DNA of 64,000 nt from a virus, in the IMG/VR virus record IMGVR_UViG_3300006104_000016, positions 1-64,000 of that record. One strand, 5' to 3'. A program made the position numbers and the translations under genes. The notes below the pieces were generated by a model. It had not been told where the DNA came from, ran no database searches, and saw nothing but the letters and a program-made list of their open reading frames with translations. This document shows, piece by piece, positions 38,208 through 62,762 of this stretch (the stretch's first letter is position 1; every line of letters starts with the position of its first letter).

Positions 38208-38225
38208 AGCTCTTGACAAAGAGCT
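38208..38225 (+). repeat. Perfect inverted repeat over the -35 of the 38.2-kb promoter
   Basis: AGCTCTT at 38208-38214 and AAGAGCT at 38219-38225 are exact complements around GACA. The palindrome contains the TTGACA box, so a DNA-binding protein or an RNA hairpin could control this promoter. Confidence 0.65.
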
Positions 38226-38241
38226 AAATCTATGATATAAT
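38213..38241 (+). promoter_or_regulatory. Perfect-consensus sigma70 promoter
   Basis: TTGACA at 38213-38218, 17-nt spacer, TATAAT at 38236-38241 with an upstream TG (extended -10) and downstream GGT. It reads into 38272. The rest of the 166-nt gap after 38105 shows no gene. Confidence 0.8.
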
Positions 38242-38271
38242 GGTAGTATAAAAATGATGAAGGATTATACT

Positions 38272-38589
38272 ATGATTATACACATGAGAACACCCAAGTC
38301 TAAACCAAAGAAACCAAACAAACAAAAACACGAACAATATGTAGCATGGTTAAAATCTCATGCTCCAAAACAGATTGTTGCCACTCGTGAACTCAAAAAA
38401 ATCCCACCATTTCGTAGAGAAACACCACACTATCCATCTTTAAATATGGAAGTTGGTGTAGCTACAAAGAAAGCCCCTGTTCAATATACAGGTGATGCCA
38501 TGTTAGGTGTTGCTACTATGCACAAGAGTAATAGTGTTCCTGTATTTCAACAAAAAGACGCTGAAGACATTTCAAGGATGCGAAGATGA
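38272..38589 (+). CDS. Small basic protein, unknown function
   Basis: 105 residues beginning MIIHMRTPKSKPKKPNKQK; very basic N-terminus. The start at 38272 is preferred over 38254 because AAGGA lies eight bases upstream. It overlaps the next gene by four bases. No motif recognised. Confidence 0.55.
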   Translation: MIIHMRTPKSKPKKPNKQKHEQYVAWLKSHAPKQIVATRELKKIPPFRRETPHYPSLNMEVGVATKKAPVQYTGDAMLGVATMHKSNSVPVFQQKDAEDISRMRR

Positions 38590-39263
38590 TAGCCTATAAA
38601 CCAAGTAGTAATATTATTCATTTTGAATTTGATACTCGCAAAGAGATTACTACAACCTTTTTCCGTATTCAAGAATATTATGAATCACCATTAGAAGGCC
38701 TAGTAGGCAAAAAGTTTTCGGTATATGATTTCTTAATTGAATCTATGGATAACATGGGTAATTTAAATTACTTCAATTTTTGGACAGGCTTTAACTTTCC
38801 GGATTATATTCTTAAAGAATGGATTAAATTAAATCCACAAAAAGAATGGACACCTAAAGAAAAAGAACTAATTGATAAAATCAAAGAGAAGGTCAATTGG
38901 AATGAAAAGTTTTATGTCATTGGTTCATTAAAGACGGATAAGACTGCATATAGGCATGAAATGGCGCATGCTCATTATTATACTGAAACCTTATATAAGG
39001 TTGATATGGACATTTTAACACATAGGCTATTGAGTAAGCATAAGAAACAATACCAAATCATTCGTAAGCATTTAATAAAACTTGGTTATAATACCAAAGT
39101 TATTATGGATGAAATTCAAGCATACCTATCTACCGAACCAAAGAAATTTTTAATTGAAGAATTTGGTATCAATTATGAAGAATTATCACCACTTATTAAA
39201 AGATACCAAAAGACATTCAAACAATACCGTGAGCAATCATATGAGCTTGAGGTATACCAATAG
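38586..39263 (+). CDS. HExxH-containing (metallopeptidase-like) phage protein
   Basis: 225 residues. KTAYRHEMAHAHYYTETLYK contains HEMAH, a zinc-metallopeptidase-type motif, with a possible third ligand further on (DEIQAYLS). The rest is helical and basic. It is upstream of the VWA/HExxH protein and separated from it by a hairpin and a promoter. Peptidase function is inferred from the motif alone. Confidence 0.55.
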   Translation: MIAYKPSSNIIHFEFDTRKEITTTFFRIQEYYESPLEGLVGKKFSVYDFLIESMDNMGNLNYFNFWTGFNFPDYILKEWIKLNPQKEWTPKEKELIDKIKEKVNWNEKFYVIGSLKTDKTAYRHEMAHAHYYTETLYKVDMDILTHRLLSKHKKQYQIIRKHLIKLGYNTKVIMDEIQAYLSTEPKKFLIEEFGINYEELSPLIKRYQKTFKQYREQSYELEVYQ

Positions 39264-39283
39264 TTGTTGTAAAAAAACAACAA
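39264..39283 (+). terminator. Stem-loop before the 39.3-kb promoter
   Basis: TTGTTGT (39264-39270), six A, then ACAACAA (39277-39283) form a 7-bp hairpin directly after the stop codon of the 38586 gene. No T-run follows, so termination would be weak. Confidence 0.4.
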
Positions 39284-39299
39284 ATGCCAAATAAAGTGC

Positions 39300-39328
39300 T
39301 TGACTGGCAAGTATTCTTGTAGTATAAT
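39300..39328 (+). promoter_or_regulatory. Sigma70 promoter for the VWA protein gene
   Basis: TTGACT at 39300-39305, 17-nt spacer, TATAAT at 39323-39328 followed by GGT. Belongs to the GCTTGACT...TATAATGGT module seen throughout 38-63 kb. Confidence 0.75.
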
Positions 39329-39355
39329 GGTCTCATATTAATTAGAAAGGTTTAT

Positions 39356-41467
39356 ATGGAACTAGTGCAGTCAAAATCACTTCTTGCCAAGTTAATGGCA
39401 ACAGAAAATCTTATCGTAGAGCAACGCAATGTTGATACGGCATCTTTTGATGTTAAGAACCGTGTTTTAACCGTACCTGTGCTTGATAAGAATATATCAG
39501 GTTACCTATATGACCTTTTCATGGGTCACGAAGTAGGCCATGCTTTATACACACCTAGCGAAGGTATGTTAAAAGCTAATGAACTTGAAATACCAATGTC
39601 ACTTATGAATGTCCTTGAAGATGTTCGTATCGAAAGAAAAATCAAAAACAAATATCCTGGTATTCGTAGCTCTTTTGTAAAAGGTTATCAAGACCTAATT
39701 AAAAAAGATTTCTTTGGTATCAATGATGTTGATGTTAATGAAATGAATTTTATTGACCGTATCAATATGTTTTCAAAAGGCGGTCCAACACTTGGTATCA
39801 AATTCAATGATGATGAACAATCATTACTTAAAAAAGTAGAATCAACCGAATCTTATGATGATGTTATCGAAGTGGCTAAAGAAGTCATGGAATACATGAA
39901 GATGCAAAAAGAAGCCAAAGATAAACTTAAAATGGAAATGGATGATAACGAAGAATACGAAGAAGACAATGATGAAGATGGTAATTCTGATGACGCATCC
40001 AATTATGATTTAGAAGGTGAAGGTAATGACGAAGTGAACCAAAACGATCCTGACCAATCAGGCAAACCTTTAGATGATAAAGCAGGTACATCAGCAGGTT
40101 CTGAATATTCATCACATACTGATGAAAACTATATGAAGAATCAAAAGAAACTATTTGCTTCTGATGGTTCATCATACTATTACGGTAACATTCCTGATTA
40201 TGACTTAACAAAATGTATTATTGGTCATAAAGCATTATGGGATAGATATCGTAAATACCAAGAAAAAATGGAATATGAAAGTCGTGGTATCAATATGGAC
40301 AAGTATCAAAAGATCCGTAAAGATGCTGCTAAGGTTGTATCATATCTTGCTAAAGAATTTGAACTTAAAAAGAATGCTGAACAATTAAAACGAGCATCTA
40401 TTGCCAAAACAGGCGAACTTAACATGAGTAGAATTTTCTCATATAAGTTTAGTGAAGATATATTCAAAAAGGCAACTATTGTTCCTGATGGTAAATCTCA
40501 CGGTCTTGTAATGTTCCTTGATTGGTCTGGTTCAATGGCTAATCATTTAGAAAGTACCGTAAAACAAGTAATTAATCTAGCATTATTCTGCCGTAAGGTA
40601 AGTATTCCTTTTGAAGTATATACCTTTACATCAGAATATGATGATTATGATGCCAATACAACATATGGCGGTTATCGTCCTACACCTAAAGTTGGTGATA
40701 TCGCTTGTGAGAGAATGAACCTATTGAATATCTTATCAAGTAAAATGTCATCAGCAGAATTTACTTATGCTGGTGCTGCTCTTGCTAAAATGTCAGCTGG
40801 TAGATTCTCTAATAGACCTAGATTCTTTGAATTAGGCGGTACACCATTTAGTGAATGTATTATGGCTGCTATGAAGTTAGTGCCACAATTTCAAAAAGAT
40901 TATAAACTTCAAATTGTGAATACCGTGTTCTTAACAGATGGTGATGGCCATGCATTGAATCGTGTGGTTAATGAAATGAATGAGCATGGCGGTTTCAGAG
41001 CAGATGCATACGATCCTGCAAACGGTGATGATTTCAGAAGTCAAAAAATGGTGATTGTTGATCCTGTTACCAAAAATCAAGAATATGCTCCTGATAGATA
41101 TGGTCGTGAATTAACAACTACATATATAAAGATGCTTAAAGCTAGAACAAATTCTAATATCGTAGGTTTCTATATTCTTAATGGTAGAGAGTTTAATCGC
41201 AATTCATATGATTTCTTTTCAGCCGCTGCTGACCATGATAAGATTAGATTAAACTTCCGTAAGAATAAGTATGCTATAGCGACATCAGCAGGATATGATG
41301 AGTATTATTTACTCCGAGCTGAAGGTATGGATACTGATGATGATGTAGAATTTGTGGTTAAAGAAAATGCTACAACAAGAGGTTTAGTATCAGCGTTTAG
41401 TAAGTATGCTGGTAATAGATTATCTAACCGTGTAGTGCTAAATAGATTTATTGAAATGATTGCATAG
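39356..41467 (+). CDS. VWA-domain protein with HExxH motif (CobT-like)
   Basis: 703 residues. MGHEVGHALYTPSEG (H58, E59, H62) is a metallopeptidase motif, followed by an EDVRIERKIKNKYPG patch. A highly acidic linker (about 195-240) follows. A C-terminal VWA domain begins with the MIDAS motif FLDWSGSMA (about residue 388). In aquatic T4-like phages such proteins are often labelled CobT, and the AAA protein at 54700 CobS. A MoxR-VWA chaperone/remodelling pair is more likely than cobalt chelation. The true substrate is unknown. Confidence 0.75.
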   Translation: MELVQSKSLLAKLMATENLIVEQRNVDTASFDVKNRVLTVPVLDKNISGYLYDLFMGHEVGHALYTPSEGMLKANELEIPMSLMNVLEDVRIERKIKNKYPGIRSSFVKGYQDLIKKDFFGINDVDVNEMNFIDRINMFSKGGPTLGIKFNDDEQSLLKKVESTESYDDVIEVAKEVMEYMKMQKEAKDKLKMEMDDNEEYEEDNDEDGNSDDASNYDLEGEGNDEVNQNDPDQSGKPLDDKAGTSAGSEYSSHTDENYMKNQKKLFASDGSSYYYGNIPDYDLTKCIIGHKALWDRYRKYQEKMEYESRGINMDKYQKIRKDAAKVVSYLAKEFELKKNAEQLKRASIAKTGELNMSRIFSYKFSEDIFKKATIVPDGKSHGLVMFLDWSGSMANHLESTVKQVINLALFCRKVSIPFEVYTFTSEYDDYDANTTYGGYRPTPKVGDIACERMNLLNILSSKMSSAEFTYAGAALAKMSAGRFSNRPRFFELGGTPFSECIMAAMKLVPQFQKDYKLQIVNTVFLTDGDGHALNRVVNEMNEHGGFRADAYDPANGDDFRSQKMVIVDPVTKNQEYAPDRYGRELTTTYIKMLKARTNSNIVGFYILNGREFNRNSYDFFSAAADHDKIRLNFRKNKYAIATSAGYDEYYLLRAEGMDTDDDVEFVVKENATTRGLVSAFSKYAGNRLSNRVVLNRFIEMIA

Positions 41468-41475
41468 GAGAAATA

Positions 41476-41700
41476 ATGGTGGAATTATCAAAATTTTATT
41501 CGGATGACGAAAGACGCCGAGCAGAGGTAGAATATACAGGTAATGGTTTTCTTATTAATTTTTATCTTGATGAGAAACTAATTCAAAAACGAACAACATA
41601 TTCAGAAGACGATGCTGAAATGATTGCTGAAGATTTTGTTCTAGGTCAAGCTGGCCCTAGTTTATTAAATGAAAATTTAGTTGGCCCAGCTGATTGTTAA
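41476..41700 (+). CDS. Small unknown protein
   Basis: 74 residues, acidic, beta-then-helix pattern (GFLINFYLDEKLIQKRTTYSEDDAEMIAEDFV). It starts 8 nt after the VWA gene with GGAGAAATA upstream. Unknown function. Confidence 0.6.
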   Translation: MVELSKFYSDDERRRAEVEYTGNGFLINFYLDEKLIQKRTTYSEDDAEMIAEDFVLGQAGPSLLNENLVGPADC

Positions 41701-41701
41701 T

Positions 41702-41956
41702 ATGACACAAACTACCGAAATATTAAATATCACACAAGAAGAATGTGCTGAAGTTATTCAAGCGATATCTAAAATACATAGATTTGGATTCGACATACAT
41801 AATGCTAAAGAAAATTTAGAACATGAGATTGGTGATGTCCTTTGTATGATTGATTTATTGGTAGAGAATTGTATTGTATCAGATTCTAATATTAATGAAG
41901 CAAGAAAAGCAAAAAGAGAAAAATTAAAACTTTGGTCAAAGATTAAGAACCTATGA
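41702..41956 (+). CDS. Short MazG-like NTP pyrophosphohydrolase
   Basis: 84 residues beginning MTQTTEILNITQEE. EECAEVIQAISKIHRFG ... ENLEHEIGDVLCMIDLL gives the ExxE...ExxD metal-binding helices of the MazG/dUTPase-2 superfamily. MazG-like proteins in phages may act on dNTPs or alarmones. Overlaps the next small ORF by four bases. Confidence 0.7.
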   Translation: MTQTTEILNITQEECAEVIQAISKIHRFGFDIHNAKENLEHEIGDVLCMIDLLVENCIVSDSNINEARKAKREKLKLWSKIKNL

Positions 41957-42075
41957 ACCCACATGATTTATTAAAATTCTTACAGACGATATATTGTTTT
42001 ACTTCTGAAAGTAATCCAATTAAGCCGGTCATAAAACAAAAGATTGATGAACTAAAGAGAGTAGTGTTTCAATGA
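41953..42075 (+). CDS. 40-residue small ORF
   Basis: MNPHDLLKFLQTIY ..., coupled to its neighbours at both ends (ATGA overlaps). No motif. Included because it fills the gap between the MazG-like and epimerase genes without overlap problems. Confidence 0.5.
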   Translation: MNPHDLLKFLQTIYCFTSESNPIKPVIKQKIDELKRVVFQ

Positions 42076-43179: not shown

Positions 43180-43194
43180 AATTTAAGGATTATT

Positions 43195-43518: not shown

Positions 43519-43519
43519 T

Positions 43520-43868: not shown

Positions 43869-43879
43869 AAGACAAAAAT

Positions 43880-45774: not shown

Positions 45775-45802
45775 AGGATAACACATCCATGCCAAAAGTC
45801 AA
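45775..45802 (-). promoter_or_regulatory. Sigma70 promoter for the 45478 gene
   Basis: On the minus strand TTGACT (45802-45797), 16-nt spacer, TATCCT (45780-45775). Begins right after the stop codon of the upstream gene. Confidence 0.65.
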
Positions 45803-45808
45803 GCATTA

Positions 45809-46138
45809 TTAAGCGATTTCTGCTAAATAATCTCGATAATCAATGGTGGGTTCGGCATAGCGGATCTCGCCTTCGTATTCGAGCTGGCTCTTTTCAAATG
45901 GAGACATCCAGTCATCCGCTTGGAGGGAGTATCCGATAATGTCTGAGCGGAAGAAATTGTTATTCTCCTCGATGTCCAAGCGAACCATCTCCACAACCTC
46001 AGCTGGGTCCACGCCTTGTGGAATGTTAGTGATTTTGTAGGATTGACCACCCTTCATTTTCCAGCGGTAGTCACCAGTGAAACCTTGGTGGGCGGCATAA
46101 TTTTCTTGGTCTTGCGTATCGATTACTAACATACTCAT
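45809..46138 (-). CDS. Small acidic protein, unknown function
   Basis: 109 residues starting MSMLVIDTQDQENYAAH, with AAGGAG eight bases upstream. The YRWKMKGGQSYKI patch and acidic tail give no family. Single-gene transcription unit between two promoters. Confidence 0.6.
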   Translation of the reverse strand: MSMLVIDTQDQENYAAHQGFTGDYRWKMKGGQSYKITNIPQGVDPAEVVEMVRLDIEENNNFFRSDIIGYSLQADDWMSPFEKSQLEYEGEIRYAEPTIDYRDYLAEIA

Positions 46139-46166: not shown

Positions 46167-46194
46167 ATTATACAGAAAATGGATGGAATGTCAA
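46167..46194 (-). promoter_or_regulatory. Sigma70 promoter for the 45809 gene
   Basis: Minus strand: TTGACA (46194-46189), 16-nt spacer, TATAAT (46172-46167), then GGAAC. Confidence 0.75.
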
Positions 46195-46274: not shown

Positions 46275-46302
46275 ATTATACAGAAACCAATGAAAAAGTC
46301 AA
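46275..46302 (-). promoter_or_regulatory. Second, upstream sigma70 promoter in tandem
   Basis: Minus strand: TTGACT (46302-46297), 16-nt spacer, TATAAT (46280-46275), then GGAC. No gene lies between it and the next promoter at 46194. Confidence 0.7.
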
Positions 46303-46327
46303 GCGAAATCTAGGGGGCCTAGGGGGC

Positions 46328-46355
46328 TTGACTTTATTGCCAGATGTGATATAAT
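46328..46355 (+). promoter_or_regulatory. Plus-strand promoter antisense to the 46363 gene
   Basis: TTGACT (46328-46333), 16-nt spacer, TATAAT (46350-46355). It fires into the 3' end of the minus-strand gene at 46363-46656, with no plus-strand gene for 1.4 kb. Divergent from the promoter at 46275-46302. Confidence 0.65.
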
Positions 46356-46362: not shown

Positions 46363-46656
46363 TTAATTACAGCCCAAATACTGCTGAAACGGAACCACTC
46401 CACCGAATCCGTTTGGAGCCCATACGGTCTGATAGATGGGGCGGCAACCTCGACCGAACTGGCCAACGTAGGGATTAGCATTGTATCCATAAGAGCGATT
46501 AAGCTCATATCCTACGATGCCCCCTATAATAGCTGGAGCGATCCAATTGTTACCACCGCCATGATGGTACCCACCGCCATATCCGCCTCTGAACCCATCG
46601 TGAGCCTGAGCCCCGATGGAGACTGATAATAATAGAACTGCTAATAATTTGCTCAT
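46363..46656 (-). CDS. Secreted Gly/His-rich protein, paralogue of the 5429 gene
   Basis: 97 residues. Signal peptide (MSKLLAVLLLSVSIGAQA), then GFRGGYGGGYHHGGG, a glycine-zipper-like APAIIGGIVGYELN segment and a C-terminal part with two Cys ending QQYLGCN. Shares this whole layout with the protein at 5429. ATGA overlap with the upstream gene, GAGGAG ribosome-binding site. Metal binding or membrane insertion is inferred only. Confidence 0.7.
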   Translation of the reverse strand: MSKLLAVLLLSVSIGAQAHDGFRGGYGGGYHHGGGNNWIAPAIIGGIVGYELNRSYGYNANPYVGQFGRGCRPIYQTVWAPNGFGGVVPFQQYLGCN

Positions 46657-46953: not shown

Positions 46954-46981
46954 ATCCTAACATATCCATACCAAAAGTCAA
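46954..46981 (-). promoter_or_regulatory. Sigma70 promoter of the microprotein/secreted-protein operon
   Basis: Minus strand: TTGACT (46981-46976), 16-nt spacer, TAGGAT (46959-46954). Confidence 0.6.
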
Positions 46982-46989: not shown

Positions 46990-47313
46990 TTAGCGGTATA
47001 GATAGCCACCTGCCCAATCAGCGATTTCCTTCAATAATTCTAGATCCTTAACGATATTGAAACGGACACCCTTGGCAGGGGCTTTAAAGCTAGCTGCCTT
47101 ATAGATATCGCCAGTCGCCTTCTCCACGAAGCAGTGGACAGAGCCTGAAAACTTAACCAATTGGCCTGTCTCCACATCATAGTCATGGCGGACAAGCTTA
47201 TAAAAGCGCTTGCCTTCTTGGATATCAATCTTCAATACATTATGAGTCCACTTGGCAGCATAATTGTCCTCGATAACCTCACCTAAAACCTTACAAAATC
47301 CTAAAACCGTCAT
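46990..47313 (-). CDS. Conserved small phage protein
   Basis: 107 residues starting MTVLGFCKVLGEVIEDN, six codons inside the longer frame, because AAGGAG lies just upstream. The CFVEKATGDIYKAASFKAPAKG-type segment is very common in phages of many kinds; its function is unknown. Own promoter at 47341-47368. Confidence 0.7.
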   Translation of the reverse strand: MTVLGFCKVLGEVIEDNYAAKWTHNVLKIDIQEGKRFYKLVRHDYDVETGQLVKFSGSVHCFVEKATGDIYKAASFKAPAKGVRFNIVKDLELLKEIADWAGGYLYR

Positions 47314-47340: not shown

Positions 47341-47368
47341 ATTATATCAGAACTGGCAAAAAAGTCAA
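47341..47368 (-). promoter_or_regulatory. Sigma70 promoter for the 46990 gene
   Basis: Minus strand: TTGACT (47368-47363), 16-nt spacer, TATAAT (47346-47341), then GGT. Confidence 0.75.
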
Positions 47369-47371: not shown

Positions 47372-47557
47372 TTAATTGAAATAATCGCCAGGGCTACAAT
47401 AGTATGAATTTTCAAGCATAGGCATATCCATCCAAGCATATGGCCCCATGTTTAAGGCATCCATAACCTGACGGTTCATCCATTGCATGGCTGAGCCAGC
47501 ATCGGGTGCCTCCACATCATAGATGTTATTCAATACATGAAAGTGGTATAATTGCAT
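47372..47557 (-). CDS. Small unknown protein
   Basis: 61 residues starting MQLYHFHVLNNIYDV; aromatic and Met-rich. AAAGGAGATAAAAA precedes the start. Own promoter at 47586-47613. No family recognised. Confidence 0.55.
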   Translation of the reverse strand: MQLYHFHVLNNIYDVEAPDAGSAMQWMNRQVMDALNMGPYAWMDMPMLENSYYCSPGDYFN

Positions 47558-47585: not shown

Positions 47586-47613
47586 ATTATACATGATTCC
47601 TACCAAAAGTCAA
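47586..47613 (-). promoter_or_regulatory. Sigma70 promoter for the 47372 gene
   Basis: Minus strand: TTGACT (47613-47608), 16-nt spacer, TATAAT (47591-47586), then GGT. Divergent from the plus-strand promoter at 47638; the two form a 10-bp inverted repeat. Confidence 0.75.
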
Positions 47614-47637
47614 GCATTTTTTAGCCCCAAATAGTGC

Positions 47638-47665
47638 TTGACTTTCCCCTTGGATATGATATAAT
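47638..47665 (+). promoter_or_regulatory. Upstream tandem promoter for the GP88-like gene
   Basis: TTGACT (47638-47643), 16-nt spacer, TATAAT (47660-47665), then GGT. No ORF lies between it and the next promoter. Confidence 0.7.
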
Positions 47666-47726
47666 GGTTCCACACCGCCCCTGCGTGCTAGCTCCAATAT
47701 GACCGTTTTATGACCAAAAATAGTGC

Positions 47727-47754
47727 TTGACTTTCCTGCCAATTAGTGTAGAAT
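47727..47754 (+). promoter_or_regulatory. Downstream tandem promoter for the GP88-like gene
   Basis: TTGACT (47727-47732), 16-nt spacer, TAGAAT (47749-47754), then GGT. Confidence 0.65.
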
Positions 47755-47781: not shown

Positions 47782-48498
47782 ATGTTATTGACTAGAGGCA
47801 ATCCAAAAATCATGAAGGGCGAAAAGAAGGGCTACCTAACCAGTATCCTCCATTTAGCACCTGCTGACTTATCAGGCCACCAAACCTGTCCTAAGGCAAC
47901 CGCAGGCTGTAAAGCTGCTTGCTTGAATACAGCAGGCCGTGGTGGTATATTCAAGAAGGGCGAAAATACCAATGTAATTCAGCAAGCCCGTATCCGTAAA
48001 ACCAAGCGCTTTTTTGAAGCTCGTGAGCAATTCATGGAAGAGCTAGCACTTGAAATACAGAGCACCATCAAATATGCTGAAAAGAAGGGATTAATCCCTG
48101 TATTCCGTTTAAACGGCACCAGTGATATCGCATGGGAGAAAATCAGAGTAGGACAATACCGCAACATGATGGAAGCATTTCCTACTGTCCAATTCTATGA
48201 TTACACCAAAATAGTCGGTCGCACTGTACCATTCAATTATAACCTAACCTTTTCTGCTGCTGACGGAAACGACCACGATGTTTACCGTGCTATCGAGCAA
48301 GGTTATAATGTAGCAGCAGTATTTGATAAGGGCTTACCAGAGCAGTACCTAGGTCTCCCTGTGATTAATGCTGATGACACCGACCTTCGCTTCCTTGATC
48401 CTAAGGGTGTTATTGCCGGTCTCAAGGCGAAGGGCAAGGCTAAGAAGGACACCAGTGGTTTTGTCAAGAAAACCATACCAATCGCACTAGCTGCTTAA
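47782..48498 (+). CDS. GP88-like Cys-rich phage protein
   Basis: 238 residues. TCPKATAGCKAACLNTAGRG gives a C-x6-C-x3-C cluster near residue 36, then a conserved FRLNGTSDIAWEK patch and a beta-alpha series (VQFYDYTKI, YNLTFSAA) that could be a TIM-like barrel. It resembles the Gp88-type proteins of many phages. The Cys cluster could bind metal or Fe-S. Function unknown. Confidence 0.65.
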   Translation: MLLTRGNPKIMKGEKKGYLTSILHLAPADLSGHQTCPKATAGCKAACLNTAGRGGIFKKGENTNVIQQARIRKTKRFFEAREQFMEELALEIQSTIKYAEKKGLIPVFRLNGTSDIAWEKIRVGQYRNMMEAFPTVQFYDYTKIVGRTVPFNYNLTFSAADGNDHDVYRAIEQGYNVAAVFDKGLPEQYLGLPVINADDTDLRFLDPKGVIAGLKAKGKAKKDTSGFVKKTIPIALAA

Positions 48499-48506: not shown

Positions 48507-48540
48507 AAGTCAGGCACCCCAAAAAGTGCTTGACTTTTTT
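48507..48540 (+). terminator. Terminator fused to the next promoter
   Basis: AAGTCAGGCAC (48507-48517), 8-nt loop, GTGCTTGACTT (48526-48536), then TTTT. An 11-bp stem (one G-U pair) plus T-run: rho-independent. Its 3' arm contains the TTGACT box of the promoter at 48530. Confidence 0.65.
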
Positions 48541-48557
48541 ATTGGATCGTGTATAAT
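48530..48557 (+). promoter_or_regulatory. Upstream tandem promoter, overlapping the terminator
   Basis: TTGACT (48530-48535), 16-nt spacer, TATAAT (48552-48557), then GGT. The 70 nt to the next promoter encode nothing obvious. Confidence 0.7.
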
Positions 48558-48627: not shown

Positions 48628-48655
48628 TTGACATTTTTGCCATTTCATGTATAAT
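48628..48655 (+). promoter_or_regulatory. Downstream tandem promoter for the 48682 ORF
   Basis: TTGACA (48628-48633), 16-nt spacer, TATAAT (48650-48655), then AGC. Confidence 0.7.
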
Positions 48656-48828: not shown

Positions 48829-48831
48829 TAT

Positions 48832-48960
48832 CAGAGGTGCTCGGAAGTTCCTCAGGATACCTCTGGAACTTTCGGTATCGTGCTGAGAAACTAACACCAA
48901 TACAGGAGCACTGGCCAGCGAAGGCCATGGCGAGGTATTACACGCAGGCGCCTCGCTAAG
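48832..48960 (+). ncRNA. Candidate structured non-coding RNA
   Basis: By eye richer in GC than the genes around it, with many complementary segments: CAGAGGT/ACCTCTG (48832-48838/48859-48865), AAGTTCC/GGAACTT (48845-48851/48865-48871), GTGCTC/GAGCAC (48837-48842/48906-48911), TGGCC/GGCCA (48912-48916/48923-48927) and GCGAGG/CCTCGC (48930-48935/48951-48956). The first three compete with each other, so more than one fold is possible. No convincing ORF. The family is not recognised. Confidence 0.45.
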
Positions 48961-49045
48961 TCCGTGAGGTATCATTGAGGTACTTGAGGTAAGACTATTG
49001 AGGTACTATACAGGTTTTAATGAGGTAAAAGTATCCAAATAATGC
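48961..49045 (+). other. Non-coding stretch with GAGGTA repeats
   Basis: GAGGTA recurs at 48966, 48977, 48986, 49000 and 49022 (plus 48932 upstream), irregularly spaced. Each looks like a Shine-Dalgarno sequence, yet none precedes a start codon here. Confidence 0.5.
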
Positions 49046-49073
49046 TTGACATTCTATCCAAATATGATATAAT
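49046..49073 (+). promoter_or_regulatory. Sigma70 promoter for the 49106 operon
   Basis: TTGACA (49046-49051), 16-nt spacer, TATAAT (49068-49073), then GGT. Confidence 0.75.
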
Positions 49074-49667: not shown

Positions 49668-49695
49668 TTGACTTTTGGTATGGATGTGATATAAT
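49668..49695 (+). promoter_or_regulatory. Sigma70 promoter for the 49723 operon
   Basis: TTGACT (49668-49673), 16-nt spacer, TATAAT (49690-49695), then GGT. Confidence 0.75.
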
Positions 49696-50217: not shown

Positions 50218-50245
50218 TTGACTTTTATAGTGGAAAGTGTATAAT
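50218..50245 (+). promoter_or_regulatory. Sigma70 promoter for the 50297 gene
   Basis: TTGACT (50218-50223), 16-nt spacer, TATAAT (50240-50245), then GGT. Confidence 0.75.
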
Positions 50246-50296: not shown

Positions 50297-50671
50297 ATGG
50301 CAACATTAAAAATCAGAAAAGGCAAAACTAATCGCCACGAGAAAATCACGCAAGTGCTTTTATCTGGCAAAGTAGTATCGCCTGACGAAATCAAAGCAGT
50401 ATTCAAAGGCACAGACCAAGAAGCGGTGTTATATCGCTTATCAACCAATATTTACAATATTCGCCGTGACGGTGGCATTGTTAAGGTTGTAAAAGATGGT
50501 CGTAAGGTGACTGGTTATCAATTGGTTAATCCAGATGCTTTTGATGCTAACGGTCGTTACAAGCAAGTTAAAGCTAAGGTTACAACAACCGCTAAGGTTG
50601 AGGTAAAGGCTGCTGAACCTGCTAAGGTAAAACCAGTAGCACAAGACAAAAAAGTAGCTCTCGCTGCTTAA
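50297..50671 (+). CDS. Small winged-helix-like basic protein
   Basis: 124 residues. Residues ~1-75 alternate helices and strands with IRRDGGIVKVVKDGRKVTGYQLV as a possible wing, followed by an Ala/Lys/Val-rich tail (KAKVTTTAKVEVKAAEPAKVKP). May bind DNA and act as a regulator. Family not recognised with certainty. Confidence 0.55.
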   Translation: MATLKIRKGKTNRHEKITQVLLSGKVVSPDEIKAVFKGTDQEAVLYRLSTNIYNIRRDGGIVKVVKDGRKVTGYQLVNPDAFDANGRYKQVKAKVTTTAKVEVKAAEPAKVKPVAQDKKVALAA

Positions 50672-53002: not shown

Positions 53003-53647
53003 ATGTTTATATACCAAAATCGACCAAAAGACAATTGGTTATCACCTTACACTATCGTTGAGAAGATAATCTTCTGGCGAGAGATTGAATACAAAGAACC
53101 AATGGTAAAATTTTGGCATGATGTATTAGAACCATTCTGTAATGCCCTTTTTGCTGTTAGAAACTTTATCAACCGTGATATTCGATATGTCAAGATTGAT
53201 CCATGGGATACATGGTCAATGGATAATACTTTGACCCATATCATTCTGCCTATGCTTATTCAGTTAAAGAAAACGAAACACGGTGCGCCTCATATTGATG
53301 ATGTTGATGTGCCATCAAACTTACGAAGCACAACGAAGTCCGCACAAAAGGCTAAAAAGAATATCTTGGCTGAAGCTGGCGATGGTAATTGGTTTAAGCG
53401 TTGGGATTATGTTTTATCTGAAATGATTTGGGCTTTCACCGAATTAAACAAAGAAGATTGGGCTGACAAATTTTGGTCAGGTAATATTGACCATATATGG
53501 ATTGATTTGCCTGATGGTGGTGCTAAATTGAAAAAAGGTCCTAAGCATACACTTAAATTTGATAAAAAAGGCCACGATAAACATTGGGCTCGTATTCAAA
53601 ATGGTTTAAGATTGTTTGGTAAATATTATACAGCATTATGGGATTAA
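53003..53647 (+). CDS. Conserved phage protein of unknown function
   Basis: 214 residues. IRYVKIDPWDTWSMDNTLTHIILPMLIQLKKTKHGAPHIDD and RWDYVLSEMIWAF are highly characteristic of a widespread phage protein without known role. AAGGAG precedes the start. Mixed charge, no membrane segment. Confidence 0.7.
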   Translation: MFIYQNRPKDNWLSPYTIVEKIIFWREIEYKEPMVKFWHDVLEPFCNALFAVRNFINRDIRYVKIDPWDTWSMDNTLTHIILPMLIQLKKTKHGAPHIDDVDVPSNLRSTTKSAQKAKKNILAEAGDGNWFKRWDYVLSEMIWAFTELNKEDWADKFWSGNIDHIWIDLPDGGAKLKKGPKHTLKFDKKGHDKHWARIQNGLRLFGKYYTALWD

Positions 53648-54636: not shown

Positions 54637-54664
54637 TTGATTTTTTCTCCAGTTGTGTTATAAT
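54637..54664 (+). promoter_or_regulatory. Sigma70 promoter for the AAA ATPase gene
   Basis: TTGATT (54637-54642), 16-nt spacer, TATAAT (54659-54664), then GGTCTCA, nearly identical downstream to the promoter of the VWA gene at 39323. Confidence 0.7.
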
Positions 54665-56223: not shown

Positions 56224-56587
56224 AGAACCGTTTGATATGTATGATTTAGAACAAAACATTTTAAAATGTTGGAATCTGGTCGATGAAGTTGAAGAGCTTG
56301 CCAATAATTTACATGATGGTGAAATCAATGAAGACCAAGCAATAACAACATTGTATGCTTTGAGCACATCATATCGAATAAGATTTGAAAAGTTGTTCAG
56401 TAAGTATGAACAAGGTTGTAAAGAATGGTTAGCATCTGATTGGAAACCATTTGAAGGTATGAAACCAACTGATTTTGTAAAAAAAGGTGATGTAAACAAT
56501 TATGATTCTCCTTATGTCCCAACAGGATTAGAATCACCTAAAGAACTTAAAGAAATTCTTAAACAACAAAAGAAAGATAAAAAATGA
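56210..56587 (+). CDS. Small unknown protein
   Basis: 125 residues starting MAKSKEPFDMYDLEQN (GGAGAAAATGT upstream). Helical N-terminal half; Pro/Lys tail. Overlaps both neighbours. Unknown function. Confidence 0.55.
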   Translation: MAKSKEPFDMYDLEQNILKCWNLVDEVEELANNLHDGEINEDQAITTLYALSTSYRIRFEKLFSKYEQGCKEWLASDWKPFEGMKPTDFVKKGDVNNYDSPYVPTGLESPKELKEILKQQKKDKK

Positions 56588-56808
56588 TTATTAAATTAAC
56601 CAATGCAGCACCAGAACACAAAGGCAAAATTCTTTTGGTCAATGTGAATCACATTCTAACCGTGTTTGAAACTGATGTTGTGGTTGGCACAAAGAAAGTT
56701 GAAACCGTAACCAACATCTATTCAACAACACAACAAGGTTGGATGGTTAAAGAACCAATTGCAACCGTTCATAAACTAATTGCAGCAGCATATAAGAAAG
56801 CACAATAA
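56584..56808 (+). CDS. Small phage protein, flagellin-regulator-like fold
   Basis: 74 residues, beta-rich: MIIKLTNAAPEHKGKILLVN...TNIYSTTQQGWMVKE. Common in phages, unknown role. Overlaps the next gene by one base (TAATG). Confidence 0.55.
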   Translation: MIIKLTNAAPEHKGKILLVNVNHILTVFETDVVVGTKKVETVTNIYSTTQQGWMVKEPIATVHKLIAAAYKKAQ

Positions 56809-57038: not shown

Positions 57039-57046
57039 AATAGTGC

Positions 57047-57074
57047 TTGACTTTTGGTCCAGATGTGTTATAAT
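57047..57074 (+). promoter_or_regulatory. Sigma70 promoter for the 57097 operon
   Basis: TTGACT (57047-57052), 16-nt spacer, TATAAT (57069-57074), then GGT. Confidence 0.75.
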
Positions 57075-57096
57075 GGTATGTTAAAGTGAGGAAATT

Positions 57097-57261: not shown

Positions 57262-57270
57262 GAGAATATT

Positions 57271-58060: not shown

Positions 58061-58305
58061 TGCTTTCTTTTTATCGTTATCTACAGGCGAAAAAACATCT
58101 TGCGCTTCAAAATGAAACCATTAGAATGTATGCTGATGATTATACAAGAGGCACAATGAATGATATGCTTCAAGCACAAAAAGAAATGATTGAATTTGAA
58201 GTTGAATATTATCGTATGAAGTCGGTAAGATTGGGTTATATTGTATTGACATTATCTATTATTGGTGTTATACTGTATGGTTCATATAAGTATGGAGTAT
58301 TATAA
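58060..58305 (+). CDS. Small protein with C-terminal membrane anchor
   Basis: 81 residues; one C-terminal membrane segment (LGYIVLTLSIIGVILYGSY). TAATG overlaps at both ends. Unknown function. Confidence 0.55.
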   Translation: MLSFYRYLQAKKHLALQNETIRMYADDYTRGTMNDMLQAQKEMIEFEVEYYRMKSVRLGYIVLTLSIIGVILYGSYKYGVL

Positions 58306-58568
58306 TGGTAACAACAGTTAAAAATGTATCAAGATGGATTGCATCGAACTTGTTAATTATTGGAATATTTCTTGCAATTATTCTTTTAAATATAGCTTAT
58401 TATTTAATACCTAAAGGTGGTTTCAATGGCACCTTTGAAAAAGGTATTCAAAATCATTTAGTATGGTCGGTCAATAATGAATGTTATTTTGTCAAGCCAC
58501 TAAATACAACAGATGTTTTATTGGTCAGGTTATCTGATTGTGATAAAACAGAAACAAGAGGAAGATAA
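58305..58568 (+). CDS. Small protein with N-terminal membrane segment
   Basis: 87 residues; membrane segment LLIIGIFLAIILLNIAYYL, then a soluble region with two Cys (NECYFVKP and LSDCDK). Coupled to both neighbours. Unknown function. Confidence 0.55.
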   Translation: MVTTVKNVSRWIASNLLIIGIFLAIILLNIAYYLIPKGGFNGTFEKGIQNHLVWSVNNECYFVKPLNTTDVLLVRLSDCDKTETRGR

Positions 58569-58732: not shown

Positions 58733-58733
58733 A

Positions 58734-58997: not shown

Positions 58998-59006
58998 ACT
59001 AAATAA

Positions 59007-59030
59007 TAAGGTAAATTAACTCATACCTTA
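59007..59030 (+). promoter_or_regulatory. Small hairpin at the ribosome-binding site of the PurD-like gene
   Basis: TAAGGTA (59007-59013) pairs with TACCTTA (59024-59030); the 3' arm touches the AGGA ribosome-binding site before the ATG at 59040. It could tune translation. Confidence 0.4.
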
Positions 59031-59039
59031 GGAATTTAA

Positions 59040-60359
59040 ATGCTTATTCTCGTTCTTGATCCACCAGCATTAACTTTAGACTGGTGCTTACGCTGTGTTG
59101 CTGCCGGACACACAGTCAAATTGTATACCAAAGGCTCAAGGTCTTCCCATATAGGTGAAGGCCTTGTAGACAAGATTACCAATTGGCGCAAGTATATGGA
59201 TGTTGCCGATTTGATATTCTCATCAGATAACCTCGAAATGATGGATGAAATTGATGAGTATATTAAGAAAGGTTATCCTATATTTGGACCAGGTAAACGA
59301 GCAGCTAAACTAGAATTAGACCGTATGTATGGTCAAAAAGTAATTGAAGACTTTGGTGGTAAAGTTATACCATCACACCCATTCAGTAATTATGATGCAG
59401 CCATTCAATTCGTAAAAGAACATGGTGGTCGTTGGGTTTCTAAACCAATAGGTGAAGAAGAAGACAAGACATTATCATATGTTGCCAAAGATGAGGCAGA
59501 TATGATTGGTTTCTTAATGAAACATAAAGAAAAAGGTGGCGGTACCGGTAAGTTTATTCTACAAGAATTTAGACCTGGTATTGAACTATGTGTGACTGGT
59601 ATATTTGGCCCAGCAGGTTGGATGCCATTCTTTGCAGAAGGTTTTGAACATAAGAAACATATGAACAAAGACCTTGGTGTAAACACAGGAGAGATGGGAA
59701 CAGTTATCCGTTACACCAAACAATCTAAACTAGCAGATATGCTACTCAAACCAATGGCAGACACCTTACACAAGATTGGTTATGTTGGTATGCTAGATAT
59801 GAATTGTATCATTGATGAGAAAGATGGTACACCATGGCCAATGGAATGGACAGCAAGACCTGGATATCCTATGTGGAATATTCAACAACCTTTACATAAA
59901 GGTGACCCAGCAGAATGGATTTTAGATTGTGTTAAAGGTAAAAACACATTAGAAGTGGATTTTAAAACTTGTGTTGGTGTTGTAATGGCAAATTCAGATT
60001 TCCCACACAACAAAAACGAAGAAGAATCATACCTAGACTTCCCTGTTTTAACAGAGAAAGCAGAAGGTGATGATTATAAATTTATTCATCCTTGTGAAGT
60101 GAAACTATCAAAGACAGTTAAAATGGTCGATGGTGTGTTAGATGAAGAAGCCTATGAATGGGGAACAGCAGGTAGTTATATTGTTGTTTGCACAGGAGTA
60201 GGTGATACAGTATCAGAGGCAAAAGATAAAGCTTATGATATTGTCGATAAAGTTAAGTTTGGTAACGATGAACATCATAGAACCGATATCGGTGATAAAT
60301 GTGATGATGCATTGAAAAAATTACACAAACTTGGTTATTGTAAAGATTGGAAATATTAA
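59040..60359 (+). CDS. PurD-like ATP-grasp ligase
   Basis: 439 residues. N-terminal ~90 residues form a Rossmann-like domain but lack the GSGGREHA start of cellular PurD (here MLILVLDPPALTLDWC). The ATP-grasp core shows FILQEFRPGIEL, NTGEMGTVIRY, GYVGMLDMNCII and PMEWTARPGYP (metal-binding Glu/Arg). Cellular PurD joins glycine to phosphoribosylamine in purine synthesis. Given the divergence, it may ligate an amino acid to another acceptor. It lies alone among small genes. Confidence 0.75.
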   Translation: MLILVLDPPALTLDWCLRCVAAGHTVKLYTKGSRSSHIGEGLVDKITNWRKYMDVADLIFSSDNLEMMDEIDEYIKKGYPIFGPGKRAAKLELDRMYGQKVIEDFGGKVIPSHPFSNYDAAIQFVKEHGGRWVSKPIGEEEDKTLSYVAKDEADMIGFLMKHKEKGGGTGKFILQEFRPGIELCVTGIFGPAGWMPFFAEGFEHKKHMNKDLGVNTGEMGTVIRYTKQSKLADMLLKPMADTLHKIGYVGMLDMNCIIDEKDGTPWPMEWTARPGYPMWNIQQPLHKGDPAEWILDCVKGKNTLEVDFKTCVGVVMANSDFPHNKNEEESYLDFPVLTEKAEGDDYKFIHPCEVKLSKTVKMVDGVLDEEAYEWGTAGSYIVVCTGVGDTVSEAKDKAYDIVDKVKFGNDEHHRTDIGDKCDDALKKLHKLGYCKDWKY

Positions 60360-60377
60360 TTAATTAAGGAGAAAATT

Positions 60378-60680
60378 ATGGCAGATGATATTCAACAAGC
60401 AACACCTGAAGTGACAGCAACACCAGCACCTGAAGCTACACCAGCACCAGCTGCACCAGAAGCACCAGCATTTCATGCAGGACTATCTAATGTTTCTAAT
60501 GATATTGTTGGTTATATTAATAATGAATTAGTAAAACATAAAGAATTGCTTACCATCGTTAATGCTCTCAAAAAGAATGTTAATACATTACAAGGTGAAT
60601 TAAACACAGCAGGAGATAAATTACTTGCTGAAGAAAGAACACTTTGGGAAAAGATTAAACATATTTTTGCTAGAAAATAA
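60378..60680 (+). CDS. Pro/Ala-rich N-terminus plus coiled coil
   Basis: 100 residues: low-complexity Ala/Pro/Thr/Glu start (about 5-35), then a coiled coil (VNALKKNVNTLQGELNTAG). AAGGAGAAAATT precedes the start. Unknown function. Confidence 0.55.
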   Translation: MADDIQQATPEVTATPAPEATPAPAAPEAPAFHAGLSNVSNDIVGYINNELVKHKELLTIVNALKKNVNTLQGELNTAGDKLLAEERTLWEKIKHIFARK

Positions 60681-60682
60681 AC

Positions 60683-60711
60683 TTGACATAACAGCAGTAT
60701 TGTGTTATCCT
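60683..60711 (+). promoter_or_regulatory. Sigma70 promoter for the 60719 operon
   Basis: TTGACA (60683-60688), 17-nt spacer, TATCCT (60706-60711) with an upstream TG (extended -10). Very short leader before the ATG at 60719. Confidence 0.55.
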
Positions 60712-60718
60712 TTACATT

Positions 60719-61282
60719 ATGAATATATTTTACCTAGATAAAGACGAAACCGTTTGTGCGCAAATGCACAACGATAAACATTGTATAAAAATGATTTTAG
60801 AATATTCCCAGCTTTTATCCACGGCCCACCGTGTATTAGATGGCCAAGAAGTAACTGTAAAATCAAAAACTAATCGTAATGTTAAGCGTTGGATTCTATC
60901 TGATGACCGTGAAACTATTTTGTATTCAGCAACACACATCAACCATCCATCCGCTATCTGGTGTCGCCATAGTAATTCAAACTATATCTGGTTAAGTAAA
61001 CTACTCAAAGAACTATGTAAAGAATATACCTATCGTTATGGTAAAGTCCATAAGTGTGAACAGATAGGACTAGTTGATAAGTTATTTTGGAACACACCAA
61101 AGAATATACCTAATGCTAACTTTACCGAACCAACACCAGCTATGCCTGATGCGGTGAAGATAGCAGGAAATTCTTTGGCGTCCTACAGAAATTACTATAT
61201 AAACAATAAAACACATCTTGCTTCATGGCAAGGAAAAATTAATTCTAGACCAATTCCGGAGTGGTATAATGCCCAACTATGA
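60719..61282 (+). CDS. Conserved phage protein, possible DNA-repair glycosylase relative
   Basis: 187 residues. MNIFYLDKDETVCAQMHNDKHCIKMILEYSQLLSTAHRVLDG is highly characteristic of a T4-like phage family sometimes placed near pyrimidine-dimer glycosylases (DenV-like). I could not confirm catalytic residues, so treat the activity as unproven. A NYIWLSKLLKELCKEYTYRYG helix follows. Confidence 0.65.
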   Translation: MNIFYLDKDETVCAQMHNDKHCIKMILEYSQLLSTAHRVLDGQEVTVKSKTNRNVKRWILSDDRETILYSATHINHPSAIWCRHSNSNYIWLSKLLKELCKEYTYRYGKVHKCEQIGLVDKLFWNTPKNIPNANFTEPTPAMPDAVKIAGNSLASYRNYYINNKTHLASWQGKINSRPIPEWYNAQL

Positions 61283-61544
61283 GTTTAAGAATACAGAAAC
61301 AGATGAGATATTTGAAAAGAAAATGTCTTATACAGAATTAGACCAATACTTAATTGATAATCCTACACACATTAGGCATCATTCAGGCACACCTATTCTA
61401 TCTGACGGTATGAGATTAAATACACCTGGCACAGGTAAGGCTGATTCTACATTTGAGAAGTATGTTATTGGTAGAATGAAAGAACAAGTTGGTCAAAACA
61501 CAATCAAAGATGGTCACAAAACAAAAGCACCTAGAGAATGGTAA
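61269..61544 (+). CDS. Small FmdB-like protein without Cys
   Basis: 91 residues starting MPNYEFKNTETDEIFEKKM, which resembles the start of FmdB-type zinc-ribbon proteins (MP-YE--C) but lacks the cysteines. Conserved in T4-like aquatic phages to my recollection. Overlaps the previous gene by 14 nt and the next by seven. Confidence 0.6.
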   Translation: MPNYEFKNTETDEIFEKKMSYTELDQYLIDNPTHIRHHSGTPILSDGMRLNTPGTGKADSTFEKYVIGRMKEQVGQNTIKDGHKTKAPREW

Positions 61545-62194
61545 CATTTAATTATTGTCCGCCAAAAGTATTACCCAATTTAGAATCTGAAACCACATCT
61601 AAAGGTAGATTTTATATCTCACCTAATGGTCAGAAGTTACCATCAATCACAACTGTATTAGGTGCTTTAAAGAAAGAATCTATACAGAGATGGCGTGATA
61701 GGGTTGGTCATGATGTTGCTAATGCTATATCAAAGAAAGCATCTAATCGTGGTACCAATGTTCATACACTATGCGAGAGATATCTTAATAATGAACCATT
61801 AGGTGAAATTATGCCTGATGCTCAAGAAATGTTTTTATCTATTAAGCCATATCTCAATCGTATAGATAACATTAGATATCAAGAACAGGCATTATGGTCA
61901 GAGAAGTTAGGTGTAGCAGGTCGTGTTGATTGTATTGCTGACTTTGAATTAGATTTATCAGTCATTGACTTTAAAACATCTAAACGAGTTAAAGATTTAG
62001 AAGAAATTCAAGATTACTTTTGGCAAACAGCAGCATATGCCTTAATGTATGAAGAATTGATAGGTGAACCAATAAATAATTTGGTCATTATCATGGCAGT
62101 AGAAAATGGTGGACCTTTTATCTACAAGCAAAAAACGGAAGACTATATAGAAGGTCTTGTGAAGGCAATTAATTTTTATAAAGGAAAAATATGA
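61538..62194 (+). CDS. PD-(D/E)XK exonuclease (Cas4/MGME1-like)
   Basis: 218 residues. Motifs: SITTVLGAL, RGTNVHTLCERYL, GVAGRVDCIADFE (Asp) and LSVIDFKTSKR (D-x-K), with QTAAYALMYEEL as the following helix. This order fits MGME1/lambda-exonuclease-like nucleases of T4-like aquatic phages. It would process DNA ends during recombination or degrade host DNA. Confidence 0.8.
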   Translation: MVTFNYCPPKVLPNLESETTSKGRFYISPNGQKLPSITTVLGALKKESIQRWRDRVGHDVANAISKKASNRGTNVHTLCERYLNNEPLGEIMPDAQEMFLSIKPYLNRIDNIRYQEQALWSEKLGVAGRVDCIADFELDLSVIDFKTSKRVKDLEEIQDYFWQTAAYALMYEELIGEPINNLVIIMAVENGGPFIYKQKTEDYIEGLVKAINFYKGKI

Positions 62195-62655
62195 AAAAGT
62201 TATTATTCGTAGCATTATTATCAGCAGGCATTGCTCACGCTGATATTTTACCAAATGCAAAAGTAACACCAGGTAAACCTGATCCAAAATTAACAGCAGC
62301 AGTTATTTGTGCTAAAGGATTTACAACAACTACAGTTAGAAATGTAACCGAAGCAACAAAGAAACAAGTATATGCTAATTATAATGTAAAAAATCATGAA
62401 GGCTATTGCTCAGGTAAAGAAGGTTGTGAAGTTGACCATCTTATCTCATTAGAACTTGGTGGTTCAAATGATGTTGCTAATTTATGGCCTCAACCATTTG
62501 ATGGTGATAAAAATGCTCATCAAAAAGATAAATTAGAAAATCAATTACACGCTTTAATGTGTGCTGGTAAAATATCACAAGCAGATGCACAAAAAGCAAT
62601 TTCAACAAACTGGATTGATGCATATAAAAAATATGTAGATCCAAAGGCTAAGTAA
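62191..62655 (+). CDS. Secreted HNH nuclease
   Basis: 154 residues. Signal peptide (MKKLLFVALLSAGIAHA). HNH-type region: CEVDHLISLELGGSNDVANLWPQ with DH as the catalytic core and Asn as third ligand residue, plus KNAHQKDKLENQLHALMC. Two Cys upstream (YCSGKEGC) may form a disulphide. Overlaps the exonuclease gene by four bases. It would act in the periplasm or outside the cell. Confidence 0.75.
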   Translation: MKKLLFVALLSAGIAHADILPNAKVTPGKPDPKLTAAVICAKGFTTTTVRNVTEATKKQVYANYNVKNHEGYCSGKEGCEVDHLISLELGGSNDVANLWPQPFDGDKNAHQKDKLENQLHALMCAGKISQADAQKAISTNWIDAYKKYVDPKAK

Positions 62656-62656
62656 T

Positions 62657-62731
62657 ATGGCAACACCAAATAAACCACAAAAACCTGCACCAACCATACC
62701 TTCTAAAACTGGTGTACCACCTAAAAATTAA
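62657..62731 (+). CDS. 24-residue Pro-rich peptide
   Basis: MATPNKPQKPAPTIPSKTG...; begins one base after the previous stop and ends just before a promoter. Low information; could be non-coding. Confidence 0.35.
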   Translation: MATPNKPQKPAPTIPSKTGVPPKN

Positions 62732-62733
62732 GG

Positions 62734-62762
62734 TTGACAAACTTGAGAAAGTGTTATATAAT
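62734..62762 (+). promoter_or_regulatory. Perfect-consensus sigma70 promoter
   Basis: TTGACA (62734-62739), 17-nt spacer, TATAAT (62757-62762), then GGTTC. Reads into the 62790 ORF. Confidence 0.8.

What the first reader, a model, noticed from the sequence alone, without database searches (positions are those of the whole stretch)
38208..62762. About nineteen near-identical sigma70 promoter cassettes between small genes
Seen: thirteen plus-strand and six minus-strand promoters follow (A/T)GC-TTGAC(T/A)-16/17-TATAAT-GGT. Most begin within a few bases of the stop codon of the gene before. Three carry a stem-loop (38208, 39264, 48507). Known: T4-type phages have mobile promoter-early stem-loop (PeSL) cassettes in their hyperplastic regions. 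Inference: an equivalent cassette system has spread here in a distantly related phage and may mediate gene shuffling by recombination between promoters.
Basis: partly seen in the sequence, partly recalled or inferred. Interest (0 to 1): 0.7.

Follow-up and report, generated by a model that had tools for sequence, protein, structure and literature searches.

The report
Repeated early promoters in T4-like phage
A freshwater T4-like phage carries about nineteen host-type start signals, fifteen of them closely alike and most placed before tiny genes; they look like the phage's own early-gene switches, and comparison with relatives does not show that genes are reshuffled at them.

Summary
The promoters are real. 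The window is 64 kb of a 71.4 kb T4-like (cyanophage/Cr30-like) contig. Fifteen sites fit one long consensus, AAATARTGC-TTGACTTTT-12 nt-TATAATGGTA (0 expected), 14 of them within 45.8-50.2 kb. 'Near-identical' overstates it: mean flank/spacer identity is 55%. A distant phage contig (G001) has the same cassette down to leader and RBS, and the same scaffold: minus-strand block, divergent promoter pair, tandem promoters, gp88-like gene. Its minus-block genes are unrelated. Stem-loops are exceptional here, but in related contigs 91 of 435 promoters follow a TTGTTG/CAACAA hairpin (gene ends without promoters 20 of 2,460), a PeSL-like composite. Shuffling at promoters is not supported. Promoter junctions are better conserved than others (0.54 vs 0.36). 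Indel breakpoints lie near promoters no more often than random positions and less often than gene boundaries. In the closest relative a gene gain/loss sits at start codons, while cassette 57047 is vertically inherited. Best reading: a lineage-specific extended sigma70 early promoter-leader unit heading small early transcription units, kept alike mainly by selection, with some local copying.

The parts
38213..38241 (+). 17-nt-spacer promoter upstream of the 38272 gene; -35 lies inside a perfect hairpin AGCTCTT-GACA-AAGAGCT
39264..39328 (+). hairpin TTGTTGT...ACAACAA just after a stop codon, then the 17-nt-spacer promoter (39300-39328) of the CobT/VWA-like 'peptidase' gene; spacer type shared with orthologous promoters of relatives
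45775..45802 (-). family cassette with weak -10 (TATCCT), heads the 45478/45185 minus genes
46167..46194 (-). family cassette, heads gene 45809-46138
46275..46302 (-). family cassette, left arm of divergent pair 1; tandem to 46194 with noncoding DNA between
46328..46355 (+). family cassette, right arm of divergent pair 1; points into the 3' end of minus gene 46363-46656 (antisense)
46954..46981 (-). family cassette with -10 TAGGAT, heads the 46942-46363 minus genes
47341..47368 (-). family cassette with shared leader/RBS, heads gene 46990-47313 (DUF7717)
47586..47613 (-). family cassette, left arm of divergent pair 2, heads gene 47372-47557
47638..47665 (+). family cassette, right arm of divergent pair 2; drives a noncoding interval conserved in G001
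47727..47754 (+). family cassette (-10 TAGAAT) of the gp88-like gene 47782-48498
48507..48557 (+). composite terminator-promoter: AGAAGTCAGGCAC..GTGCTTGACTTTTTT stem just after the 48498 stop, its 3' arm being the -35 of cassette 48530
48628..48655 (+). family cassette, second of tandem pair 48530/48628
49046..49073 (+). family cassette, heads 49106/49275 genes
49668..49695 (+). family cassette 12 nt after a stop codon, heads gene 49723
50218..50245 (+). family cassette 16 nt after a stop codon, heads gene 50297, a gene that relatives keep directly after the CobS-like gene
54637..54664 (+). weak family-like promoter (TTGATT) of the CobS-like gene
57047..57074 (+). family cassette 8 nt after a stop codon; same position and near-identical in L437
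62734..62762 (+). 17-nt-spacer promoter, not of the family

Best explanation
The 19 sites are early promoters read by the host's housekeeping RNA polymerase. Fifteen share a lineage-specific extended consensus: an A-rich upstream element AAATARTGC, TTGACTTTT, a 16-nt spacer with a CC/GG step and TG before -10, and TATAATGGTA. Those that directly precede a gene usually continue into a leader (about ACATAAT..ATAAGGAG) ending at a start codon 26-29 nt after the -10. They form a promoter-leader-RBS expression unit that heads short transcription units of one to three small early genes, often beginning just after the previous stop codon. Shown: the sites, the consensus, the shared unit in a distant phage with different cargo, vertical inheritance at 57047 and at the peptidase promoter, and lack of breakpoint enrichment in relatives. 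Inferred: transcription early in infection by host sigma70, and that the units stay alike mainly by selection for one recognition sequence, helped by local copying of neighbouring units. Cargo genes turn over around them by other routes, for example microhomology at start codons.
For: Consensus and chance level. Leader: cross-phage identity 0.457 vs 0.292 shuffled; -10 to start codon 26-29 nt in 7 of 15 window family cassettes and 11 of 17 in G001 (within 22-33 nt, 9 of 15 and 13 of 17). Within-window identity 0.546, within-G001 0.555, window x G001 0.531: the two phages draw on one consensus, which fits selection better than a private burst of copying. At the peptidase promoter both phages carry TARTGC or AAAGTGC next to TTGAC but keep a locus-type 17-nt spacer, so the dialect was not imposed there by whole-cassette replacement. 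Local copying: spacers and leaders show more sub-family structure than column permutation allows (G001, two neighbouring cassettes with identical 16-nt spacers). Cassette 57047 is vertical in L437, and the 224-bp gene gain/loss there is not at a cassette. Promoter junctions are not breakpoints. Per-phage early-promoter logos upstream of novel ORFs are described for five T4-like phages (PMC1524935, passages).
Against: No transcript data. Host unknown: the correct 16-nt pattern gave 9 scattered hits in genome contigs and no candidate host. The leader ACATA motif is not explained by sigma70 or RBS needs. Cassette 57047 is more like its own paralogs (0.612) than its 9 orthologs (0.441), which cassette replacement would also give. 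Gene 50297 has moved relative to 67 of 67 relatives and has a different promoter here, as a cassette-borne move would give.
Confidence: 0.72

Rival explanations
1. PeSL-equivalent: the cassettes are mobile and serve as short homologies at which small genes are exchanged between co-infecting phages or rearranged within one phage.
For: G001 has the same slots with unrelated minus-block cargo. Window minus-block genes 45185, 45809 and 46990 lie only on the plus strand in other relatives (4, 9 and 3 loci). Gene 50297 moved and has a changed promoter. Copy-like sub-families. Hairpin+promoter composites in the clade.
Against: Promoter junctions more conserved. Breakpoints near promoters not above random and below gene boundaries. 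In the window's own variable region junctions without cassettes are as unconserved as those with. The left edge of the minus block (about 45.03-45.18 kb) has no cassette. Recent indel in L437 not at a cassette.
Confidence: 0.18
2. Stem-loops and inverted -35 pairs make these composite terminator-promoters that insulate neighbouring units; the T-run after TTGAC is kept because it completes a terminator.
For: 48507-48557 is a 13-bp stem followed by T6 right after a stop codon. Divergent pairs form long stems. In relatives 91 of 435 promoters follow a TTGTTG/CAACAA hairpin. TTGACTTT is more conserved here than in relatives.
Against: 12 of 19 sites show no hairpin at z below -2 in the -32..+14 window. 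Terminator-like sites in 44-64 kb are not in excess (13 vs 11.9).
Confidence: 0.3
3. MotA-type middle promoters: TGCTTGA is a Mot box.
For: TGCTT core preceded by A/T, as in the T4 middle consensus quoted in PMC1524935.
Against: The quoted spacing is 11-13 nt from box to -10; here 18 nt, and a full -35 hexamer is present. MotCF gave no hit, but its control was silent too.
Confidence: 0.04
4. Chance or compositional artefact of AT-rich DNA.
For: General sigma70-like matches are common in 44-64 kb (109 vs 85 expected).
Against: Strict and matrix searches: 13 vs 0.01 and 16 vs 0.0; conserved in L437 and G001.
Confidence: 0.01

Closest known systems
Early promoters of T4-like phages (T4, RB69, RB49, 44RR, RB43, Aeh1)
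   Same: Each phage has its own extended early consensus (A-rich UP region, -35, GT-rich before -10, TATAAT), used in front of conserved and novel small ORFs (PMC1524935, passages). T4 also has near-identical promoter pairs at distant loci: 31 sites, spacer copy test 0 of 1000 permutations.
   Different: T4 early-like sites are less alike on average (29 sites, mean 0.345's loose list; 15 window sites 0.502 by the same metric). The consensus here is TTGACT, not GTTTAC, and extends into a shared leader/RBS.
PeSLs, promoter-early stem-loops (Arbiol 2010; Comeau 2014)
   Same: Early promoters between small genes of plastic regions; some with stem-loops; related contigs have a recurrent hairpin+promoter composite.
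   Different: Most window sites lack the stem-loop; no link between promoters and gene-order breakpoints was found. The two papers are not held: I saw only titles and citing passages (PMC4503421; PMC3950731; PMC5348500 reference list).
HGTV-1 promoter/inverted-repeat motifs (haloarchaeal virus)
   Same: Most ORFs of one genome half preceded by one conserved promoter-like motif; compared with PeSLs by its authors (PMC3950731, passage).
   Different: Archaeal TATA-type motif with an inverted repeat; here bacterial sigma70 type, mostly without.
Morons
   Same: Small gene with its own promoter.
   Different: Lambdoid morons are described as flanked by promoter and terminator and of distinct %GC (PMC1524935, passage); here terminators are not in excess; %GC not tested.

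Membership tests
T4-type early promoter set | many host-type promoters in one genome sharing a phage-specific extended consensus | tested here: met
T4-type early promoter set | A-rich element just upstream of -35 | tested here: met
   columns -9, -8, -7 and -5 are A in 11, 10, 12 and 10 of 13 sites
T4-type early promoter set | located 5' to small novel ORFs in a T4-type genome | tested here: met
T4-type early promoter set | used early in infection by unmodified host RNA polymerase | not testable with these tools
   no transcript data, no isolate
PeSL | stem-loop (terminator) joined to each early promoter | tested here: not met
   7 of 19 with hairpin z below -2 in the -32..+14 window, five of them through an inverted -35 copy; 39264 hairpin lies outside that window
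PeSL | stem-loop+promoter composite present in the clade | tested here: met
   91 of 435 promoters in 110 related loci; random positions 10 of 2200; gene ends without promoter 20 of 2460
PeSL | gene-order breakpoints or module swaps at the elements | tested here: not met
   no cassette at the indel in L437
MotA middle promoters | Mot box 11-13 nt upstream of -10 | tested here: not met
   18 nt between TGCTTGA and TATAAT (consensus from PMC1524935)
MotA middle promoters | phage encodes MotA | tested here: inconclusive
   no hit in two incomplete contigs, control silent
Moron | promoter plus terminator around a foreign gene | tested here: inconclusive
   terminators 13 vs 11.9 expected; %GC not tested

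The most novel reading that the evidence does not exclude
Slot system: distantly related T4-type phages share one roughly 75-bp promoter-leader-RBS cassette and a common scaffold of slots (minus-strand block, palindromic divergent promoter pair, a promoter-driven noncoding RNA, gp88-like gene), while the small genes in the slots are unrelated. The cassette would then act as an exchange currency that lets single small early genes be swapped in ready for expression. The palindromic divergent pairs could act as inversion points.
Probability: 0.17. Interest if true: 0.65.

Novelty: new variant of a known kind. Interest (0 to 1): 0.42.

Why it matters
It gives an uncultured freshwater T4-type lineage a precise early-promoter signature, so early genes can be recognised from sequence alone. 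It also gives a quantitative test of the PeSL idea outside the classical T-evens: the stem-loop+promoter composite is present in this clade, yet promoter junctions are the stable ones rather than the breakpoints. The conserved slots with unrelated cargo point to regions where small early, possibly host-takeover, genes can be looked for.

Tried and rejected
(exact cassette scan of viral contigs, zero hits) was my error: the pattern fixed a 15-nt spacer; one search repeated the same wrong pattern. Repeated correctly: 47 stretches, some of them the window's own population.

Private homogenisation of promoters in this phage: rejected, because identity to G001 equals identity within the genome. Simple inversion between two inverted cassettes as origin of the minus block: not supported, no cassette at the left edge. 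Host identification by promoter pattern: nothing. Known structured RNA in 44-51 kb: only a sub-threshold snoRNA match. The inverted-35 composite is not a recognisable family: 69 stretches in viral contigs; of 72 matched places 17 have both -10 boxes within two mismatches, window-population loci among them. Pfam gave functions for few cargo genes. The hairpin at 39264 was missed because my fold window began at 39268; corrected.

Limits: survey loci are anchored on the peptidase and CobS-like genes, so conserved promoters are over-represented; junctions were scored only where the upstream gene had three or more homologs. Genes were called with a home-made caller. Rows dropped: the window population's own loci and near-duplicates (110 loci kept). 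One search lists the 101 junctions counted.
Full report
What the window is. Its proteins match UvsX, a gp43-type polymerase, a gp41-type helicase, primase, NrdA/B and exonuclease families. Nearest named relatives are cyanophages by polymerase (51%) and phages C48C1, DLP6, X1 and Cr30 by UvsX (58-67%). That the source is freshwater is inferred from recalled IMG sample numbers, not from a call. The record is 71,437 bases and has no DNA-level match in the phage collection for 44-64 kb. Contigs of the same population are 99.96-100% identical (L009, L010, L089, L090) and show no rearrangement at the cassettes.

The observation. TTGACN-(15-17)-TATAATGG occurs 13 times against 0.01 expected. A weight matrix from 13 sites finds 16 in the window and none in shuffles at 12 bits. 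Fourteen of the 15 strong sites lie within 4.4 kb (45.8-50.2 kb). Conservation runs from about -12 to +31 relative to the first base of the -35. Seven of 18 scorable sites are within 20 nt of a preceding stop. None of five named phage genomes (C48C1, DLP6, Cr30, X1, T4) has the strict pattern; C48C1 has 18 ordinary TTGACN-16/17-TATAAT promoters with varied spacers.

Relatives. Two protein scans gave 160 loci, and two more with window minus-strand genes gave 160. Relatives use the same general architecture, a 16-nt spacer, TG before -10 and GG after, but mostly other upstream sequence such as ACAACA. Their promoters are conserved by position: at the peptidase gene 77 of 85 loci have a promoter-like site, mostly TTGACG-GTAAGC/GTAGAC-17 nt, 51-52 nt before the start. 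After gene 56808 relatives have a promoter about 20 nt past the stop with its own spacer type (19 of 31 loci with a promoter); the window's 57047 is nearer to its paralogs (0.612) than to 9 orthologs (0.441).

A second phage with the same system. Contig 3300032236_000645 (G001) has 17 sites scoring on the window's matrix, several of them with off-consensus -10 boxes. It shows peptidase, a minus-strand block, a divergent promoter pair, tandem plus promoters and a gp88-like gene (65% identical) in the same order, and three further window genes (49275, 51207, 56808) follow in the same order. None of the six called minus-block genes of the window has a hit to G001 at E 0.05. Leaders are shared as well (cross identity 0.457 vs 0.292 shuffled). 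In a tree of 53 peptidases G001 is the deepest branch and the window pairs with L014. Strong-scoring sites number 15 in the window, 16 in G001, one each in L016 and L047, and none in the other 49. Many loci are short, and G001 sits on a long branch, so its place is unsure.

Selection or copying. Within-window, within-G001 and between-phage identities are 0.546, 0.555 and 0.531, so the family is not a private burst. Both phages have the dialect's upstream letters next to the peptidase -35 (AAAGTGC in the window, TTAGTGC in G001) while keeping a 17-nt spacer there. On the other side, spacers and leaders contain more close pairs than column permutation allows (and, for G001), so some neighbouring units are copies. 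T4 shows the same kind of near-identical pairs.

Stem-loops. Seven of 19 sites have a hairpin with z below -2 across -32..+14, against 10% of random positions. Two divergent pairs account for four of these, the composite at 48507-48557 for one, 38213 and 49668 for the rest. In 110 related loci, 91 of 435 promoters follow a TTGTTG/CAACAA-type hairpin within 48 nt, against 10 of 2,200 random positions and 20 of 2,460 gene ends without promoters; 96 of 195 such hairpins are followed by a promoter within 30 nt. The window keeps one such element next to a promoter, at 39264.

Shuffling test. (a) Junctions with a promoter are more conserved than those without (146 junctions, 0.536; 313 junctions, 0.363; p 5e-5). 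Hairpin+promoter junctions are highest: 0.637 (n 59), promoter only 0.436 (n 99), neither 0.340 (n 327), hairpin only 0.455 (n 21). (b) Of 404 ends of 101 indel junctions between related loci, 24 lie within 60 nt of a promoter; random positions give 19.0 (80 of 500 draws reach 24) and gene boundaries 37.4 (496 of 500); hairpins likewise show no excess, 8 of 404 against 7.7. (c) L437 is 88.8-98.5% identical to 55.4-61.2 kb: a 224-bp, one-gene difference lies exactly between start codons, and cassette 57047 is unchanged in place with a few substitutions. (d) In the window's own variable region adjacency to relatives is lost at nearly every junction, with or without cassettes. For shuffling speak the unrelated cargo in G001's slots, the minus-strand genes that are plus-strand in other relatives (4, 9 and 3 loci), and the move of gene 50297, which directly follows the CobS-like gene in 67 of 67 loci, usually behind a TTGCCA promoter where one was found (42 of 67).

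Literature. Searches. The two PeSL papers are not held; I saw their titles in reference lists and a citing passage which says that regions of intense shuffling have a high density of PeSLs (PMC4503421). PMC1524935 (passages) describes per-phage early promoter logos in five T4-like phages. PMC9004378 and PMC7029224 (passages) predict early promoters in a marine methylophage and in pelagimyophages without describing such an array in the passages I saw.

Verdict. The array is a real and well-defined early-promoter family with a shared leader, a new variant of the known T4-type early promoter sets. The clade has PeSL-like composites, but the claim that they mediate gene shuffling is not supported by the comparisons possible here.

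Noticed in passing
L012, L014, L015, L021, L025, L026, L028 and others: Recurrent TTGTTG-loop-CAACAA hairpin upstream of early promoters in related T4-type contigs (91 of 435 promoters), a PeSL-like composite.
   Followed up: yes
47666-47726; L346 4164-4242 and 4271-4378: Noncoding segment driven by the first of two tandem promoters carries CCACRCCRCCCCTGCGTGC in window and G001, and CCCCCTGCGTG again in G001; in viral contigs only these two populations match the 19-mer. Candidate small RNA; fold of the window copy not significant, z -3.1 in L346.
   Followed up: partly
46302/46194, 47638/47727, 48530/48628: Three tandem promoter pairs 89-108 bp apart with noncoding DNA between.
   Followed up: partly
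46296-46334 and 47607-47644: Two palindromic divergent promoter pairs (AAGTCAAGC..GCTTGACTT), possible inversion points.
   Followed up: partly
50297-50671 and 53003-53647: Genes that lie downstream of the CobS-like gene in 67 of 67 and 55 of 55 relatives lie upstream of it here.
   Followed up: yes
56583-56807 versus L437: One-gene gain/loss with exact junctions at AATGA start-codon microhomology.
   Followed up: yes
L260, L306, L198: Other phage contigs have their own promoter arrays with repeated identical spacers, e.g. about ten TTGACT-taaTtatttaattcaac-GATAAT in L260 and 26 promoters in 12 kb in L306.
   Followed up: no
48830-49040: About 200 bp without a called gene, with repeated TGAGGTA-like ribosome-binding-site sequences.
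   Followed up: no
58126-58568 versus L437: Identity drops to 0.65-0.75 inside a region otherwise mostly 0.84-0.99 identical, suggesting allelic exchange away from any cassette.
   Followed up: no
59040-60359: Protein with GARS-type ATP-grasp domains (Pfam GARS_A and GARS_C above cut-off), unusual in a phage early region.
   Followed up: no
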